This document shows, piece after piece, positions 25,740 to 32,398 of a stretch of DNA of 64,000 nt. The translations under genes were made by a program, and so were the position numbers. Positions within the stretch are counted from its first letter, which is position 1. The number at the start of each line of letters is the position of its first letter. The notes beneath the pieces were generated by a model. The model saw only the letters and a list, made by a program, of their open reading frames with translations. It made no database searches and had not been told where the DNA came from. Origin of the DNA: an uncultured Bacteroidota bacterium (GTDB taxonomy: Bacteria > Bacteroidota > Bacteroidia > UKL13-3); contig CAIVZR010000034.1 in the NCBI GenBank assembly GCA_903910445.1, positions 1-64,000 on the forward strand, given 5' to 3'.

Positions 25740-26900
25740 ATGCAGCAGCTACACTACCTACAAGCATTTAACTGCCTCATGGAGAAATGTCCCGATACCT
25801 GCTGCTCGCAATGGGGTATTACTGTTACAAATAAAAATAAGGAATACATGCAAGCGCATGCACCCGAATTAATTGATAGCATTGAGCCCTCCGATGATAA
25901 TGAGTTTCAGATGCGGAGGACACATGAAGGCGATTGCATTCATTTATGCGAAGGGCGTTGTAAAGTGCATCAAAAATATGGAGAAGCGATGTTACCCGAT
26001 ATATGTCAATCGTTTCCTAAGAATATCACAGCATACCAAGATGATTTTTTAGTTACTGCGAATTTGGCCTGCCCCGAAAGTTTGCGTCTGGCATTAGAGA
26101 GCACATCCTATACTAATTTTATACAATGGGATAGCATCACCAGGCAACGCACGCCCGAAGTGGTATTTAAGCCACAACTCCCATTCGATGAAATAAAAAT
26201 CAACCCTATCGATTGGTATCATGCAGCCCAGGAATGTATTAATGATGCAGGAACAACGCCCGATGAAATGATATCCATCTTGCTAATGGCATTATACCCA
26301 TTAACTAAGTGGGATGCAGAAAATCATGCATGGCCCGATACCCGCATATTTAAAATTAAATCGGCAGAGAAATTAAGAGCCATGCTCACCAGCGCCACCT
26401 ACCTCAAACAGGAGGAGGAAACCATGAACCTATTACAATTAATTTATGAATTGATTTATGGAAATCGTACGCGCTATTTTTCGATTTTACAAATTGTAGA
26501 TGAAGAGCTGGGAAGCCCTACCGATGAGCCATCTCATGTACATGAAAATTATTTGCGGATAAAAGAATGCTGGGGTCAAAATGAAAAAAGCATGGAGCCA
26601 TTTCTCAAAAATTGGATTCATGCGCGTTTAAGTGTAGTACTTTTTCCACTGGGATTAACGCCTTCCAAGTGGTATCCTGCAATGATTAATATTGCCATAG
26701 AATATTTGGCTGTGAAAACATTTTTATATGCCCGAAACCAACGATTGAATGGTCAATGGACTTTAGATTTATTAGTAGAAACAATACAGCCACTTGCCAA
26801 ACAGTTTCATTTATGCGAACCCATTTCATGCTATGAATTTGGATTGAAACGCGGATGGAATGAGCCATCAAAGATCATTTCATTGGTAATGAATTACTAA
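25740..26900 (+). CDS. FliB-like (lysine N-methylase family) cysteine-rich protein
   Basis: 386 residues with the N-terminal cysteine pattern of the FliB/YkgJ group: C12, C17, C21-C22 followed by SQW, then C66, C70, C74 with H77, C89 and C111 (NLACPE). This set is typical of a metal or Fe-S centre. The family founder methylates lysines of flagellin in Salmonella. This window and phylum give no sign of flagella, so the substrate here is another protein or unknown. The remaining two thirds are helical without a recognised fold. It is a single gene following the MccB-like gene by 93 bases. Confidence 0.75.
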   Translation: MQQLHYLQAFNCLMEKCPDTCCSQWGITVTNKNKEYMQAHAPELIDSIEPSDDNEFQMRRTHEGDCIHLCEGRCKVHQKYGEAMLPDICQSFPKNITAYQDDFLVTANLACPESLRLALESTSYTNFIQWDSITRQRTPEVVFKPQLPFDEIKINPIDWYHAAQECINDAGTTPDEMISILLMALYPLTKWDAENHAWPDTRIFKIKSAEKLRAMLTSATYLKQEEETMNLLQLIYELIYGNRTRYFSILQIVDEELGSPTDEPSHVHENYLRIKECWGQNEKSMEPFLKNWIHARLSVVLFPLGLTPSKWYPAMINIAIEYLAVKTFLYARNQRLNGQWTLDLLVETIQPLAKQFHLCEPISCYEFGLKRGWNEPSKIISLVMNY

Positions 26901-27118
26901 GGGTTTGTTATATAGTACATTTTCGTTTACTGATACTAAATTTTCATTAATCTTCTGAGGATAAATTTATCTAATTATAGGTTTTCAATTGTTGCAGCAT
27001 AAATTGCAGATATTGCAATGCTGAATAATTAGGAAATATTGAGATAATTGGATTGATTCATTGAGTTGGGTCAATATATTATTTACAATCCGAATCCAAT
27101 GATTCATCAATAAGAATA
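26901..27118. other. Short non-coding spacer before the transposase relic
   Basis: AT-rich, with no gene seen. A loose CAGCAT/ATGCTG inverted pair near 26998-27024 is too weak to call. Confidence 0.4.
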
Positions 27119-27690
27119 AAAATAAAAATATATCAAAATAAATATCGCATACCATCTGCGAGGCTTGCCGGATGGGATTATGCCAACAATGCCGACTATT
27201 TCATTACCATTTGCACTAAAAACAGGATTCATTTTTTGGGTGTATCATAAATCATAAAATGGTATTATCCGAAATGGGTAAGACTGCTGAAGCCTATTGG
27301 TATGAAATTCCAAATCAGTTTCCATTTGTGAAATTGGAATCATTTGTAGTTATGCCCAATCATATACATGGAATAATAGTAATAAATAAACCAATTGAAC
27401 GCTGAATACCTGAATTAAAAGATTCGGTTCCGCCTGCCGAAAGTATTTCTATCGGTGGATTTGCCGGAAATAAAAATCCTATGTTAAATGAAAATTTATC
27501 ACGTATTGTCAGATGGTATAAAGGGCGATGCGCCTTCGAAATACACAAATTTCATCAGGAATTTAATTGGCAAACTCGTTTTCATGACCATATTATTAGA
27601 AATGAAACAGAATTCAATCGAATCAGCAATTATATTAAAATGAATCCTAAAAATTGGGGAATTGATAAATTTTCCCAACCTGAAAAATAA
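27119..27690 (+). pseudogene. Broken REP-associated tyrosine transposase (RAYT, IS200-like)
   Basis: Three pieces in two frames together spell a RAYT protein. An N-terminal piece (27143 on: YRIPSARLAGWDYANNADYF then ITICTKNR) ends at a TAA at about 27248. A second piece in another frame (from 27259: MVLSEMGKTAEAYW...VVMPNHIHGII) contains the HUH motif HIH and is cut by a TGA at about 27403. The same frame then continues to 27690 (MLNENLSRIVRWYKGRC...TRFHDHIIRNETEFN...YIKMNPKNW). A frameshift and a nonsense codon make it inactive. There is no clear start codon. Such genes are single-copy relatives that mobilise REP palindromes. Confidence 0.82.
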
Positions 27691-27805
27691 TTTCTACAGA
27701 TCTGAATTAATTAATGGATTGAAACGTTCTGTTGAAATTGAATGGACCGTTGGGATTAAATAGTTCCGACGAAATTGAATCCTTGGTTGGGAAATGATTC
27801 GTCAC

Positions 27806-27851
27806 GTTCGGAATGTAGAGACGCGATTAATCGCGTCTCTACATTCCGAAC
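27806..27851. repeat. 46-bp perfect palindrome (REP-like)
   Basis: Arms 27806-27828 and 27829-27851 are exact reverse complements with no spacer. The core is GTAGAGACGCGATT and its complement. Similar GTAGAGACGCGA-type palindromes are dispersed in many Bacteroidota and cyanobacterial genomes. It lies 115 bases downstream of the RAYT relic, consistent with a REP substrate of that enzyme class. No T-run follows, so it is not read as a terminator. Confidence 0.9.
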
Positions 27852-27948
27852 AACCCGAACCATCATAGATATTCGATATCCCAACAATTTTAAATCCATC
27901 CAATACAAATTATTAAATCCATACCTATTTTTCTGCAAAGTTTTTCAT

Positions 27949-27956
27949 TAAATTCG
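27949..27956 (+). promoter_or_regulatory. Minus-7 element of the vWA-like gene (TAAATTCG)
   Basis: TAAATTCG is the TTCG variant of the minus-7 box and sits seven bases before the ATG at 27964. The same octamer stands before ffh. No good minus-33 element was seen. Confidence 0.45.
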
Positions 27957-27963
27957 CTTCACC

Positions 27964-29298
27964 ATGCGGAAGATATTATTTCTCTTGCTATTCTATGTGA
28001 GTTCCATGCTCCACGCCCAGTTGGTGAGTGTCGATTATTTGATGGGGGAGAAGCAATCTACTGTTGATTTGTATCAGCGTCCTGATAAGTCAATTCCAGC
28101 AATCATTCTTAAAATGAATTTCGCCGACGATTCCATCATGAATCCTCAGGTGGCAAAAGCGCTCAAGGGCAAGGCGGTGTATGAAATTCATCTGGTGTAT
28201 TCTGAGTATCGTCAGGTAACGAATTTCGATCAACCCGAATTGAATCGTACGCGTTTAGAGAATTTAAAAAAGATAGCCCCTCAAGTTTTTAATGCCACGA
28301 ATATCAAATGGAAATTCATTGCCCAAACAGGCTGTCATAACCCTGATGAATGCCAGAAGTTTTTTCATGGATTCGTGATCTTCTTCCAGCAGCCTACCAC
28401 CAAGGAAACAGCCAAGAAGGACGCCGATTTTTTAGACGCCAATTTCAAGCCCGAGCCGGTGGATACTATCGAAGAGGTGAAGAAGAAAAAGGTCATCGTG
28501 GGGCATTACTATGTGCCAAAAGCCAAATGGAAACAACGCAAAGGCATTCAATATGAAAAGGCAGGTATATGGAATCGTAAACGTAAAAATATTTATGATA
28601 CCTTACTAGTGCATACCAAACGCGTGATCTATGATTATCCATTTAAGTACTATATGGCGGATAAGAAATATTTCACCGATAGTACCATCAACAAAATAAT
28701 GCGGCGCAACAACTGGAATAAAATGTTGTTAGTAACCGATGTGACTGGAAGCATGACCCAGTATATTTTGCAATTGCTCGCCTGGACCGCCGTGGATAGT
28801 AATTTGAAACGAGTCAAGACCTTTGTAGTATTTAATGATGGCGATAACAGGCCCGATATTTCCAAACCCATGGGGGCTACTGGCGGCATTTATCCTTTAA
28901 CGCCACAATCGCCCGAGTATGTGTTTAAAGAAATACGTAAGGTGATGGCTAAAGGCAATGGGGGAGGAGACATCCCAGAGAATGATATTGAGGCACTCAT
29001 TAAAGCTTTCGAAACTTGCAAAGATTGTAGTGAAGCGATATTGATTGCGGATAATCTCAGTGATTGTCGCGACTTCCCGCTGCTTTGGAAGATTAAGAAA
29101 CCCATTCATATCATTCTATGTGGCACTGCCGATGGGGTCAATACACAGTATCTTGAAATTGCTCGGCGCACGGGTGGAAGTGTGCATACCATTGAACAAG
29201 ACATCGTCAATCTCTCTAAAATGAATGATGGAGAATCCTTTTATGTGGGCAAGCAAAAGTTCATGTTAAAAGATGAAAAATTTGTACTCACCCGCTAA
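27964..29298 (+). CDS. Secreted protein with von Willebrand A-like domain
   Basis: The 444-residue product has a signal peptide (MRKILFLLLFYVSSMLHAQ). The N-terminal half (20-240) is unassigned and carries a Lys-rich linker. The C-terminal half (about 250-420) has a vWA/Rossmann-like layout. MLLVTDVTGSMTQY supplies a MIDAS-type D-x-T-G-S-M, VKTFVVFNDGD is the next strand, GNGGGDIPENDIEALIKA a Thr/Asp-loop equivalent, and EAILIADNLSDC and PIHIILCG are later strands. It probably binds a divalent cation and a protein partner in the periplasm or outside. No operon partner is evident; the flanking gene at 29307 is convergent. The function is unknown. Confidence 0.75.
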   Translation: MRKILFLLLFYVSSMLHAQLVSVDYLMGEKQSTVDLYQRPDKSIPAIILKMNFADDSIMNPQVAKALKGKAVYEIHLVYSEYRQVTNFDQPELNRTRLENLKKIAPQVFNATNIKWKFIAQTGCHNPDECQKFFHGFVIFFQQPTTKETAKKDADFLDANFKPEPVDTIEEVKKKKVIVGHYYVPKAKWKQRKGIQYEKAGIWNRKRKNIYDTLLVHTKRVIYDYPFKYYMADKKYFTDSTINKIMRRNNWNKMLLVTDVTGSMTQYILQLLAWTAVDSNLKRVKTFVVFNDGDNRPDISKPMGATGGIYPLTPQSPEYVFKEIRKVMAKGNGGGDIPENDIEALIKAFETCKDCSEAILIADNLSDCRDFPLLWKIKKPIHIILCGTADGVNTQYLEIARRTGGSVHTIEQDIVNLSKMNDGESFYVGKQKFMLKDEKFVLTR

Positions 29299-29306
29299 AA
29301 ATTTTA

Positions 29307-29543
29307 TTACTTTTTAGTAGGCTTTTCAGGTGCCAAACTATCATCTACAATTTCATCATCGGGCATGGCATCAATCTTTTTCATTATGGCCTCTTGAGCC
29401 GAATCCATATCATGCTGGGTCTTGATTTCCAAGGAATCCACCTTTTTGTTATCAGATTTTTCTTTGGCTGTTTCTTGGCAGGCACTTACGAGTAATATAA
29501 TAAATAGAAGCGTTGATAGGATTGCGGTGACGTTGCGTTTCAT
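29307..29543 (-). CDS. Small hypothetical lipoprotein
   Basis: The 78-residue product has a signal and lipobox (ILLVSAC22). The mature part is a charged, Asp/Glu/Lys-rich tail of about 56 residues with no hydrophobic core, likely disordered or helical. It converges on the vWA-like gene with only 8 bases between the stops. It is probably exported and lipid-anchored. The function is unknown. Confidence 0.65.
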   Translation of the reverse strand: MKRNVTAILSTLLFIILLVSACQETAKEKSDNKKVDSLEIKTQHDMDSAQEAIMKKIDAMPDDEIVDDSLAPEKPTKK

Positions 29544-29589
29544 GGGTATATAAAAAGTTAATAGGGCTCAAAAGTAGCATAAAATTTAT

Positions 29590-29621
29590 TTTGAAAGAAT
29601 CGCAGATAACAATTACCTTTG
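29590..29621 (+). promoter_or_regulatory. Promoter of the Cys-rich lipoprotein gene
   Basis: TTTG at 29590-29593 and TACCTTTG at 29614-29621 are separated by 20 bases, a full match to the Bacteroidota consensus in sequence and spacing. It leaves a leader of about 35 bases before the ATG at 29659. Confidence 0.7.
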
Positions 29622-29658
29622 CGCCCAAATTAAAATAATAATATAATTCATTTTTATC

Positions 29659-30192
29659 ATGAAATTTAAATTTTTAGCTCTTGCAACTGTTGTTGCTTTA
29701 TTTATCGCTTCTTGCGGAGGCGTTGACAAAGGTTTAGTAGATAATATCACCAAATTTGAAGGTGATTGGACTGCTATGGTTACTCATGTAAATGGTATCT
29801 CTGATACTATGACTGCTACTGCTGACGAAACAATGAAAGCATGTGAAGAAGCTTGCAGCAAAGAATGTACTGATAAGAAGATGACTGCAGCAATGGATTC
29901 AATGAAAGAAGCTTGCAAGATTTCTAAAGAAGGAATGACTTCTACAATTGCTAATATCACTGATTTTAAAGCTAAATTGAAAACATCAACAGATGAGTTC
30001 ACTGCTTGGAAAGAAAAAGTAATGAAAGGCGAAATTAAAGCGGAAGATGCTACCAAAGCATTGGATGAATACAAAGCTAAATTGGCTGAAGCTCAAGATC
30101 AAATTGTTGCATTCCAATCAGCTTTCGATAGCTCTAAGGCAGAATGTACTTCTTCTTGCGATGAAGCTAAAAGCTGCTGCGAGAAGAAATAA
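29659..30192 (+). CDS. Cysteine-rich helical lipoprotein
   Basis: The 177-residue product has a lipobox (FIASC19). The mature chain is almost entirely charged helix, with cysteines at 62, 66, 70, 86 and at 163, 167, 173, 174. The i/i+4 spacing of C62-C66-C70 and C163-C167 places them on one helix face at both ends of the molecule, as in a helical hairpin closed by disulfides or a metal site. Strong promoter and terminator signals flank it, so it is a monocistronic and probably well-expressed gene. No family was recognised. Confidence 0.78.
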   Translation: MKFKFLALATVVALFIASCGGVDKGLVDNITKFEGDWTAMVTHVNGISDTMTATADETMKACEEACSKECTDKKMTAAMDSMKEACKISKEGMTSTIANITDFKAKLKTSTDEFTAWKEKVMKGEIKAEDATKALDEYKAKLAEAQDQIVAFQSAFDSSKAECTSSCDEAKSCCEKK

Positions 30193-30211
30193 TTTTCTTT
30201 AATAATAATTT

Positions 30212-30243
30212 AAAAAGGCTGCCCGAATAAGGCAGCCTTTTTT
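30212..30243 (+). terminator. Terminator of the Cys-rich lipoprotein gene
   Basis: A 12-base perfect stem with the GGCTGCC / GGCAGCC core and a 7-base loop ends in a T-run. The T-run merges with the minus-7 box of the next gene, so terminator and promoter share bases. Confidence 0.92.
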
Positions 30244-30250
30244 ATTTTTG
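30243..30250 (+). promoter_or_regulatory. Minus-7 element of the RidA-family gene (TATTTTTG)
   Basis: TATTTTTG matches TAnnTTTG, and only four bases separate it from the ATG at 30255. The minus-33 region falls inside the preceding terminator stem. Confidence 0.55.
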
Positions 30251-30254
30251 CAGT

Positions 30255-30668
30255 ATGGAAGATAAAATCAATTCGTCGAAGGCTCCCGAACCAGTAGGAT
30301 TATACCCACATGCACGCAAAGTAGGCAACCTACTCTTTTTGTCGGGTGTGGGTCCTCGCGAAAAGGGAAACAAAAACATACCCGGTGTGGAATTGAATGA
30401 AGCGGGAGAAATTGTAAGTTATGATATCGAAACGCAATGCCATAGCGTGTTTCGCAATATCAAATACATCTTAGAAGACGCCGGCAGTAGCTGGGATAAA
30501 ATTGTTGATGTAACCGTTTTTCTTACCAATATGAAAGACGATTTTAAAACCTACAATCGTATTTACGCCGAGTATTTTAAAGATAACTTACCCTGCCGAA
30601 CCACCTGCGAAATTAATTGCCTTCCAACCCCAATAGCGATTGAGTTGAAAGTGATTGCAACAATCTAA
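30255..30668 (+). CDS. RidA/YjgF family enamine deaminase, possibly 2-aminomuconate deaminase-like
   Basis: The 137-residue soluble protein has the RidA fold marks: VGNLLFLSGVGPR, TQCHSVFRNIKYILEDAGSS, KIVDVTVFLTNMKDDF, and CRTTCEINCLPTPIAIELKVIA. The conserved Arg (R594-type position in CRTT) and terminal Glu (E in IELKV) expected for enamine/imine hydrolysis are present. The GVGPR and PTPIAIELK blocks recall the 2-aminomuconate deaminase branch of 3-hydroxyanthranilate degradation. No pathway genes lie nearby to confirm it. General reactive-enamine clearance is the safe call. Confidence 0.85.
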   Translation: MEDKINSSKAPEPVGLYPHARKVGNLLFLSGVGPREKGNKNIPGVELNEAGEIVSYDIETQCHSVFRNIKYILEDAGSSWDKIVDVTVFLTNMKDDFKTYNRIYAEYFKDNLPCRTTCEINCLPTPIAIELKVIATI

Positions 30669-30673
30669 GGAAT

Positions 30674-32398
30674 TTACTCCACTACAATTTTAGAAGTGCT
30701 TTGATATCCATCCTTTGCTACGATGGATAAATAATAGATGCCTGAAGCGCCGAGTATTCCTGGAGCGAGTGTGATGTTTCCGCCCTCGAAATTCCCACTC
30801 AAAATGCATTGATTCAAATTATTAAAAACCTGATAAGTACCTTGAGGATGTGAGCTTAGGAGGATTTCTAAACTTCCTTGCCCTGTTGCAAATTTCATTG
30901 CATTAAGTATAAGTGGCGACGAAGTGAAAATTGGTTTGGACGTATTAACTCCCGTATACCATGGCAGTATATGCGTTTCGGCAAAGGTTCTCCAAATGGT
31001 TTCAGTATGCACCCCACCATACAAAGCTGAGTCGGCACGGATAAACAAATAAGCCGTTTGAGGCATAGTTAAATTATTGGTGAGGTAATAAAAGGTTTGT
31101 AGGGTCAATCGATCGGTGATGGTCTTCCCAAGTTTGAAATAAATTCTGAGCAAGGCACTCGACCATAGCTCACTATTATCATAAATATTTCCAGTAAGTG
31201 CTTGCGGGTAAATTTTAGGGCTCGCCATATTTCTTCCAACCCAGCCTACGCTTGGATTATTACCATCCCAAAACGCAAATTTCTTCCAGCCAAACGAATC
31301 AATGCTAAATTTATAAGTGGTGGCCATATAATCCATCATGCCCTCTTCAATGGCTTGTCGCTCAAGCCCATTGGCCGTATTTGGTGAAGCATATTCACGC
31401 AAGCTATGCGAATACTCATGTACAATTACTTCTGCATCTTCGGCATCGTCGATGCCACCAGTTCCATAAATCAATCCCCAACCTGGTAAGAACATAGAGT
31501 TATCATCTTTCTGCCCGTGCGCATCGTAAGGCGTTGGTAAATAACCAATGGTATCGAAGCCAATGCTGGTAAGGTATTTATGAAAGGTAGTGATATGATA
31601 AAAAACCATCACATCTTCAAACTCATGCTGATGGCGAGTATAATCAAACGAAGTATCCTTGCGATATACTGGGTCGTATGAGGTATTCAAATTGTATTTG
31701 AACGGGACTAAATAACGATTGCGCAACCAAAATGTATCGAGGTTGAAAGTAGCGGTGACCTGCTTCCAGATGCGTTCGGCATTTAGAACAGCGACGTCAC
31801 TATCATTATAATCGATATAAGGCGCTGTATAGGTTTTATGCGCTGTTGTTAGCGGGTCGGTATTAAATACCTTTACCCTTACGGTACTGTCTTTTGGGAA
31901 GGCATACAAAGCGATATCTGTAGCATTGATAAGGTGATGTTGCGTATCAAAAATTTGTTCTTCTACATTTTGTGTTTCCTCATTGTATTTGGTTTGAATG
32001 CTCACCGGTATCCATTCGTTATTAAAATACCAGCTAAAACCTTTGTCTAATAATTGCTCTGGCACATCTTGAAATACATCATAGATAACTAAAAACTGCG
32101 ATGTGTTATGATTGAATATCACATTAGCAAATCCATGATAAACAGGGGCCTGATTTTTTAGTTGGCGAAAATGATATACTGTACTTGCTTCAGTACCTCG
32201 GGTGATATTCGCTTCTAACTCGCAATGCAAGGCCGTTTCCAAAAATTGCCCTACCTTCTTTAAATCTGTTGATTCGCAACTGGTATTGGGGTAATATAAA
32301 AAATGTGCCTCCCGATGGGCATAAAATGCACTATTGTTTTGTGATATTCCCTGCATCGTAATGAAGATGAGGAGTGAAAGAAGGGTTAGCGTTCGCAT
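30674..32398 (-). CDS. Secreted M36/M4-like metallopeptidase with type IX-like sorting tail
   Basis: From the ATG at 32398 (MRTLTLLSLLIFITMQGISQ) the product has 574 residues; a TTG three codons earlier is less likely. It reads as signal peptide, propeptide-like region (about 20-200), and a gluzincin catalytic domain. HEYSHSLREY supplies HExxH, and EEGMMDYMA, about 20 residues on, supplies the third zinc ligand as in thermolysin/fungalysin. The last roughly 75 residues (SSHPQGTYQVFNN...GIYYLSIVAKDGYQSTSKIVV) resemble the T9SS type A C-terminal sorting domain, predicting export across the outer membrane. It converges on ridA. Confidence 0.83.
   Translation of the reverse strand: MRTLTLLSLLIFITMQGISQNNSAFYAHREAHFLYYPNTSCESTDLKKVGQFLETALHCELEANITRGTEASTVYHFRQLKNQAPVYHGFANVIFNHNTSQFLVIYDVFQDVPEQLLDKGFSWYFNNEWIPVSIQTKYNEETQNVEEQIFDTQHHLINATDIALYAFPKDSTVRVKVFNTDPLTTAHKTYTAPYIDYNDSDVAVLNAERIWKQVTATFNLDTFWLRNRYLVPFKYNLNTSYDPVYRKDTSFDYTRHQHEFEDVMVFYHITTFHKYLTSIGFDTIGYLPTPYDAHGQKDDNSMFLPGWGLIYGTGGIDDAEDAEVIVHEYSHSLREYASPNTANGLERQAIEEGMMDYMATTYKFSIDSFGWKKFAFWDGNNPSVGWVGRNMASPKIYPQALTGNIYDNSELWSSALLRIYFKLGKTITDRLTLQTFYYLTNNLTMPQTAYLFIRADSALYGGVHTETIWRTFAETHILPWYTGVNTSKPIFTSSPLILNAMKFATGQGSLEILLSSHPQGTYQVFNNLNQCILSGNFEGGNITLAPGILGASGIYYLSIVAKDGYQSTSKIVVE

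What the first reader, a model, noticed from the sequence alone, without database searches (positions are those of the whole stretch)
29659..30192. Cys-rich helical lipoprotein with strong expression signals
Eight cysteines beyond the lipid Cys are placed at i/i+4 positions at both ends of a charged helical chain (C62-C66-C70-C86 and C163-C167-C173-C174). It has the best promoter match in the window and a perfect 12-base terminator stem. A metal-binding or thiol-buffer role in the envelope is possible, and the protein appears uncharacterised.
Basis: partly seen in the sequence, partly recalled or inferred. Interest (0 to 1): 0.5.

Follow-up and report, generated by a model that had tools for sequence, protein, structure and literature searches.

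The report
Helical lipoprotein with cysteine-rich tip
This is a real, unnamed lipoprotein of Bacteroidia, predicted to be a three-helix rod whose free end carries a cluster of cysteines that comes and goes between relatives, so the cysteines probably clamp that tip or hold a metal there, which experiments would have to decide.

Summary
It has the highest Cys density of 264 ORFs sampled from its genome. All 5 genomes of the genus carry it, each with eight extra Cys; no Pfam or NCBIfam model fits above its cut-off. AlphaFold2 gives a confident three-helix bundle. The two Cys clusters are not at two ends: by the helix topology they meet at one end, away from the lipid. In 39 homologs, 141 of 144 extra Cys lie in those two tip segments. 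Positions 86/163, 79/170 and 82/167 share one coiled-coil register. 22 of the 39 have three or fewer. I favour a cross-helix disulfide clamp; a soft-metal site is a close rival, since Met and His are also enriched there, Cys counts are often odd and VKOR is missing. A Lys-rich C-terminus at the same tip hints at contact with peptidoglycan. The promoter is a perfect Bacteroidota type but not unique in the window; expression was not tested. An undescribed envelope protein family, ordinary in kind, with one unusual feature.

The parts
29590..29621 (+). promoter-like site TTTG (29590-29593), spacer 20, TACCTTTG (29614-29621)
   Evidence: perfect match to TTTG-N17-23-TAnnTTTG; a perfect -7 box is present in all 5 genus members, the -33 TTTG in 4 of 5; a perfect TAnnTTTG lies within 150 nt upstream in 26 of 39 homologs; TAnnTTTG as the sigma-A -7 box of Flavobacterium: passages of PMC9723704
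29659..30192 (+). coding sequence, 177-aa lipoprotein precursor
   Evidence: homologs in 5 of 5 genus members and beyond
29659..29712 (+). signal peptide, residues 1-18
   Evidence: sequence: K2, hydrophobic stretch, lipobox IASC; Cys in the lipid column in 39 of 39 homologs
29713..29715 (+). codon of lipid-bearing Cys19, followed by GGVDKG without an acidic pair at +2..+6
29728..29856 (+). helix 1, residues 24-66 (Cys62, Cys66 at its far end)
   Evidence: AlphaFold2 models, mean pLDDT 83
29875..30024 (+). helix 2, residues 73-122 (Cys86; Cys70 in the loop before it)
30040..30183 (+). helix 3, residues 128-175 (Cys163, 167, 173, 174 at its far end)
   Evidence: mean pLDDT falls to 67 and 61 in the last block, residues 171-177
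29821..29934 (+). tip segment A, residues 55-92: 74 of the 144 extra Cys of 39 homologs
30124..30189 (+). tip segment B, residues 156-177: 67 of the 144 extra Cys of 39 homologs; ends in Lys-Lys
30212..30242 (+). intrinsic terminator, perfect 12-bp stem, loop 7, T-tail

Best explanation
A lipoprotein, most likely on the periplasmic face of the outer membrane, that stands off the membrane as a three-helix rod of roughly 60 A (43 residues of helix 1 at 1.5 A each). Shown here by computation: a lipobox Cys in all homologs compared, three long helices in the models, a conserved heptad core, and extra Cys almost confined to the segments that meet at the end of the bundle away from the lipid. Inferred: in the periplasm the Cys pair across the helices at matching coiled-coil layers (86 with 163; 82 or 70 with 167; 62 and 66 with 173 and 174) and clamp the free tip, while the Lys-rich C-terminus at the same tip touches peptidoglycan or another envelope partner. 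The clamp is an optional reinforcement that lineages gain and lose; the rod itself is what the family keeps.
For: Three-helix models with the window protein first and with a 60%-identical homolog first (both from the same five sequences). Of 144 extra Cys in 39 homologs, 141 are in tip segments A and B and 3 in the middle segments, which hold 3852 of 6634 residues. Tip A and tip B Cys counts rise and fall together (Spearman 0.84; 16/1/3/19 at two or more Cys). Cys columns 86 and 79, 163 and 170 lie on the hydrophobic heptad stripes of helices 2 and 3 and satisfy 86+163 = 79+170 = 82+167 = 249, the register set by the turn at G124-E125, G124 being invariant and E125 nearly so in 17 members. In genus member G004 Cys70 is absent and Cys82 present, opposite Cys167, giving C82-X3-C86 facing C163-X3-C167 with the total still eight. 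Disulfides between periplasmic proteins of another member of the phylum, Flavobacterium johnsoniae, are shown in PMC12635249 (passages). No C-X-K-(D/E)2 surface signal: 38 of 39 homologs, the target included, lack an acidic pair at +2..+6 (the signal from passages of PMC5080379). C-terminal residue Lys in 25 of 30 complete core homologs, against 12 of 48 window ORFs.
Against: Odd Cys numbers in 8 of the 17 homologs with four or more extra Cys, 7 of 16 without the one cut at a contig end. VKOR is absent from 33 of 34 genomes that carry the family, the window's own included, while the same search finds it in 3 of 14 control genomes; DsbB and DsbA were not searched. Predicted exported proteins of this genome show little preference for even Cys numbers (23 even, 17 odd among those with two or more). 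The co-variation of the two tips is not significant once relatedness is allowed for: 3 independent pairs on supported branches, same way in 1.7, opposite 0.0, no difference 1.2, median p 0.5. Coordinates of the models were not available, so no S-S distance was measured. Peptidoglycan contact is inferred from the Lys tail alone.
Confidence: 0.4

Rival explanations
1. The tip is a soft-metal site: Cys thiolates with Met and His hold Cu(I) or Zn(II) at the end of the bundle, as storage, buffering or delivery near the outer membrane.
For: Besides Cys (138 of 2260 tip residues against 3 of 3068 middle residues in 31 core homologs), Met (173 against 139) and His (24 against 10) are enriched at the tip. 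Homolog G816, cut at a contig end, has 8 Cys and 14 Met in 58 tip residues. Column 167 is Cys in 11 and Met in 11 of 31 core homologs, column 79 Cys in 9 and Met in 10. Odd Cys counts and missing VKOR fit thiols that are not all paired.
Against: Met is also common in the middle core columns (98 of 713 residues, against 47 of 221 non-Cys residues at the Cys columns), so part of the Met is plain helix packing. No conserved neighbour suggests metal handling; within the family f1 the one recurring neighbour is ridA. Some homologs have no extra Cys and only 2 or 3 tip Met. The residues were counted in related sequences, so the Fisher p-values are too small.
Confidence: 0.3
2. The protein is a Braun-lipoprotein-like spacer or tether whose C-terminal Lys is joined to, or binds, peptidoglycan; the Cys clamp or oligomerise the tip.
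For: 25 of 30 complete core homologs end in Lys and 19 in Lys-Lys although the tails vary in length and sequence; window ORFs 12 of 48 and 3 of 48. One of 17 members matches NCBIfam's major outer membrane lipoprotein model at E 1.9e-5, its cut-off not shown. A comparable abundant lipoprotein found in the peptidoglycan fraction is described in Methylacidiphilum (abstract and passages of PMC10260701).
Against: Five of 30 complete core homologs and six of the eight distant ones do not end in Lys. The predicted chain is a three-helix bundle, not a short single helix. No transpeptidase search was made. Lys-rich ends can merely bind acidic polymers.
Confidence: 0.15
3. The Cys are of little functional weight: a drift-tolerant tip that accumulates Cys because buried small thiols pack well there.
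For: 22 of 39 homologs have three or fewer extra Cys, among them a clade of four paralogs without any.
Against: Predicted exported proteins of this genome are poorer in Cys (0.74% in lipoproteins, 0.88% in other signal-peptide proteins) than predicted cytosolic ones (1.18%); all five genus members hold eight, down to 60% identity; the other layers of the core are almost free of Cys (3 in 3852 middle residues).
Confidence: 0.12

Closest known systems
Copper storage proteins Csp1/NGO1701 (DUF326)
   Same: exported all-helical bundles with many Cys and some Met and His ligands (passages of PMC12510493); CXXXC spacing is recalled
   Different: four helices with Cys lining the tube and putative TAT signals; here three predicted helices, Cys at one end, a lipoprotein signal, and no such family in the Pfam listings
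Small Tim proteins (twin CX3C)
   Same: Cys of two facing helices in one register; homolog G004 shows C82-X3-C86 facing C163-X3-C167
   Different: [quoted passage not shown] the window protein lacks Cys82; no homology claimed
Braun's lipoprotein (Lpp)
   Same: helical lipoprotein with C-terminal Lys
   Different: Lpp is a short single helix that trimerises (recalled); this one has a 159-residue mature chain predicted as three helices
Elongated three-helix surface proteins (trypanosome HpHbR 4e40, Borrelia BBH37 8s2f)
   Same: long helical bundle on a lipid-anchored surface protein (anchoring recalled); VIA Z 11.5 over 163 residues, rmsd 2.8, and Z 11.9 over 154, rmsd 3.2
   Different: Z is below the level of about 13 that the tool names for common helical arrangements; 7% identity; no sign of surface export here

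Membership tests
Bacterial lipoproteins (signal peptidase II) | N-terminal signal peptide with lipobox Cys | tested here: met
   IASC19; Cys in that column in 39 of 39 homologs; the set was picked partly by a lipobox pattern
Bacteroidota surface-exposed lipoproteins | C-X-K-(D/E)2 or similar acidic export signal after the lipid Cys | tested here: not met
   CGGVDKGL in the window protein; 38 of 39 homologs lack an acidic pair at +2..+6 (one search read the wrong Cys in two rows). The signal was defined in other families of the phylum
Copper storage proteins (Csp, DUF326) | match to the family's profile | tested here: inconclusive
   no such family in the Pfam listing for the protein at E 1 or for 17 members at E 0.01; filters drop weak matches
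Copper storage proteins (Csp, DUF326) | four-helix bundle lined with Cys along its length | tested here: not met
   three helices in two predicted models; 141 of 144 extra Cys in the tip segments
Copper storage proteins (Csp, DUF326) | binds many Cu(I) | not testable with these tools
   needs purified protein
Small Tim / twin CX3C | two CX3C motifs on facing helices of one hairpin | tested here: not met
   window protein has C163-X3-C167 on helix 3 but no C82 to face it on helix 2; met in spacing by homolog G004
Braun's lipoprotein (Lpp) | C-terminal Lys | tested here: met
   ends in KK; 25 of 30 complete core homologs end in Lys
Braun's lipoprotein (Lpp) | covalent link to peptidoglycan | not testable with these tools
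   needs sacculus preparation
Any family of Pfam-A or NCBIfam | score above the curated cut-off | tested here: not met
   for the window protein every listed match is below its cut-off. For 17 members the cut-offs are shown for the first alone; Pfam matches reach at most 2 members each, NCBIfam's SMC model 12, best E 3.3e-5

The most novel reading that the evidence does not exclude
A Bacteroidota counterpart of Braun's lipoprotein: a lipid-anchored three-helix rod whose Lys-Lys end is joined to peptidoglycan, with an evolutionarily switchable Cys/Met tip that senses envelope redox state or copper and locks or releases the tether.
Probability: 0.08. Interest if true: 0.7.

Novelty: new member of a known kind. 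Interest (0 to 1): 0.35.

Why it matters
Small helical lipoproteins of the Bacteroidota envelope are often unnamed (my general knowledge), and this family occurs in several families of Bacteroidia without a Pfam or NCBIfam model that fits. Its Cys come and go at one defined place of a shared scaffold, so related proteins with 0 to 11 extra Cys form a natural series for testing how disulfides or soft-metal sites arise at the end of a helical bundle, and whether bacteria without VKOR form such bonds in the periplasm.

Tried and rejected
Rejected: (a) that the Cys clusters sit at two ends of a chain: the predicted helices bring them to one end. (b) Coiled-coil matches to SMC, MukB, DotZ, HBL, tape measure proteins and others: below the cut-offs wherever these are shown, and the usual chance matches of long helices; PHROGs and the PDB listing show no cut-offs. 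(c) Foldseek in the PDB: no match at E <= 0.001; VIA-align best Z 12.6, spread over unrelated long bundles, so no fold relative is claimed. (d) Plasmid records: three weak matches, none over 80% of the protein. (e) VKOR as the partner of the Cys-rich form: present in 1 of 34 genomes, and that one (G239) carries a homolog without extra Cys. (f) Functional linkage to ridA: the adjacency holds in the genus (downstream, same strand) and in G007, G008, G020 (upstream, divergent) but not in G016 nor in the stretches from outside the family f1; I read it as shared ancestry of the locus. (g) Codon usage as a proxy of expression: a motif scan of the sampled stretches found one ATP synthase subunit and no ribosomal protein or elongation factor, so not done. 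(h) Rfam: no match at gathering scores in 26800-31000. (i) Papers: the listings showed nothing on this family by title or start of abstract.

Dropped rows. L011 (G078, a short N-terminal match in another protein). L037-L042 and nine of the ten rows without a locus (the tenth, the second match of G289, came back as L065); most are partial or lie in longer proteins. G359 (L033) was left out because my first script misplaced it, its flank being short at a contig end, and I did not put it back. Both matches of G391 were left out because the one fetched (L029) has no ATG in reach; the partial match in G040; the five weak partial matches other than G000. The 39 distinct sequences are what remains; one of them, G816, has no stop codon before its contig ends, so its C-terminus is unknown and its Cys count a lower bound. 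Searches ended in script errors. One search had a bug that repeated sequences and is replaced. One search took a signal-peptide Cys for the lipid Cys in two rows (G223, G239); one search repeats it correctly with the same result.

Full report
What is there. The window is part of contig C34 of a 3.43-Mb, 107-contig assembly. Its nearest records in the named collection are metagenome bins titled 'Bacteroidetes bacterium'; that they are freshwater bins is my reading of the isolate names. The ORF 29659-30192 (+) encodes 177 aa with lipobox Cys19 and Cys 62, 66, 70, 86, 163, 167, 173, 174. Upstream stands TTTG-N20-TACCTTTG (29590-29621), downstream a perfect 12-bp terminator (30212-30242). By these signs the gene is its own transcription unit (inference). 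A perfect TAnnTTTG lies within 150 nt upstream in 26 of 39 homologs, a one-mismatch box in 11, none in 2; from the density of such boxes in the window (74 on both strands) about 8% would be expected by chance (my arithmetic).

How unusual. Among 264 ORFs of 100 aa or more from the window and twenty further stretches of the same genome (353 kb) it has the highest Cys density, and the highest of 65 predicted exported proteins; the sorting was by my own simple rule.

Family. Within the genus 5 of 5 genomes have it (the other four at 99, 76, 68 and 60% identity). In the order, for which the search returned the same 64 genomes as for the family f1, 10 of 64 genomes match at E <= 1e-6. In Bacteroidia 37 of 396 genomes match the first profile at E <= 0.001, some of these by partial matches that I dropped, and 22 of 395 the better profile at E <= 1e-6. 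In an even draw over the phylum 6 of 395 match at E <= 1e-5, at full length only the window's own. So the family is patchy. For the window protein Pfam and NCBIfam give no match above a cut-off; PHROGs lists weak matches, best E 2.9e-5 to a family of unknown function over 88 residues, without cut-offs.

Fold. AlphaFold2 with the five genus sequences gives mean pLDDT 83, pTM 0.71, helices 24-66, 73-122, 128-175; with the 60%-identical homolog first, pTM 0.73 and the same helices. Both models rest on the same five sequences. The antiparallel up-down-up course is my inference from the short turns (67-72 and 123-127); I did not see coordinates. Long helical bundles are common and the structural matches are not specific.

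Where the Cys are. In 39 distinct homologs the extra Cys count 74 in residues 55-92, 67 in 156-end, 2 in 20-54 and 1 in 93-155. The first two segments are the end of helix 1 with the start of helix 2, and the end of helix 3. I drew the segment borders after seeing the Cys of the window protein and its near relatives, so the far homologs are the independent part of this test. Helix 2 positions 79, 86, 93, 100, 107, 114, 121 and helix 3 positions 135, 142, 149, 156, 163, 170 form hydrophobic stripes (my reading of the profile); paired across the turn they sum to 249, and so do the Cys positions 86/163, 79/170 and 82/167. Cys is at column 86 in 22, 163 in 19, 174 in 15, 170 in 13, 62 in 12, 167 in 11 and 79 in 9 of 39; 86 and 163 are both Cys in 16.

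Gain and loss. 17 of 39 homologs have four or more extra Cys; the other 22 have three or fewer, often none. On a tree built without the tip columns, the state 'two or more Cys' changes at least 4 times for tip A and 6 times for tip B; independent pairs on supported branches are 3, with tip B going the same way in 1.7 of them on average and the opposite way in 0.0, which cannot reach significance. The strong raw correlation (Spearman 0.84) must be read with that in mind. In the genus the total stays at eight although G004 has Cys82 in place of Cys70.

Disulfide or metal. For disulfides: the matching layers, the 70-to-82 switch, the likely oxidising periplasm of a bacterium whose window seems to carry cytochrome oxidase genes (my reading of ORFs near 48-57 kb, not tested by a family search), and the proof of periplasmic disulfides in F. 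johnsoniae (passages of PMC12635249). Against: odd counts in 8 of 17, or 7 of 16 complete ones (one search counts 6 of 17 odd because it includes Cys inside two signal peptides), no VKOR in 33 of 34 genomes, and no clear even preference in exported proteins. For metal: tip enrichment of Met (173 of 2260 against 139 of 3068) and His (24 against 10) in 31 core homologs, and Cys/Met exchange at columns 79 and 167. Small Tim proteins show that a twin-CX3C arrangement can hold zinc when reduced and disulfides when oxidised (passages of PMC3759932), so the two readings may even be two states of one tip. I put 0.4 on the clamp and 0.3 on metal.

Where it sits. No acidic surface-export signal follows the lipid Cys (38 of 39), so the protein most likely stays on the periplasmic face of the outer membrane (inference; inner-membrane retention was not tested). 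Its C-terminus, at the Cys tip, is Lys in 25 of 30 complete core homologs and Lys-Lys in 19 of 30, against 12 and 3 of 48 window ORFs, the target itself being one of the 48. That would suit contact with peptidoglycan, as for Lpp, but is only suggestive.

Verdict. A real, conserved, undescribed lipoprotein family; the Cys-rich tip is a lineage-specific elaboration at one end of a rod. No paper on this family appeared in the search listings named in Tried and rejected.

Noticed in passing
window 29307-29543 (-): Divergent ORF for a 78-aa small lipoprotein (MKRNVTAI...), with a like ORF at the same place in the 4 other genus members; no family above cut-off.
   Followed up: partly
window about 27174-27690 (+), palindrome 27806-27851: Probable remnant of a REP-associated tyrosine transposase (weak NCBIfam match, E 0.0033, 20 residues around MPNHIHG, far below cut-off; none in Pfam; interrupted by a stop) near a 20-bp perfect palindrome with core GTAGAGACGCGATTAATCGCGTCTCTAC; no exact copy in 121 fetched loci.
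   Followed up: partly
window 30243-30257: A TAnnTTTG box (TATTTTTG, 30243-30250) lies right behind the terminator stem and 4 bases before the ridA start codon, in all 5 genus members by sequence: ridA may be nearly leaderless, with its promoter box in the terminator's T-tail.
   Followed up: no
window 30255-30668; L082, L083, L084: ridA (75-90% identical to the window's) adjoins the lipoprotein gene in the 4 genus stretches compared (downstream, same strand) and in G007, G008, G020 (upstream, divergent), but not in G016.
   Followed up: yes
L089, L090, L091, L092: In four genomes of family f61, whose homologs have no more than one extra Cys, the gene has a different shared upstream neighbourhood of four genes.
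   Followed up: no
L057/L065, L059/L064, L060/L066, L061/L063: Four family f71 genomes carry two paralogs each, one with 2 to 5 extra Cys and many tip Met, one with no extra Cys.
   Followed up: no
window 27964-29298 (+): Upstream gene, predicted exported, with a weak von Willebrand A match (E 0.00065, below cut-off), at the same place in the 4 genus stretches compared.
   Followed up: no
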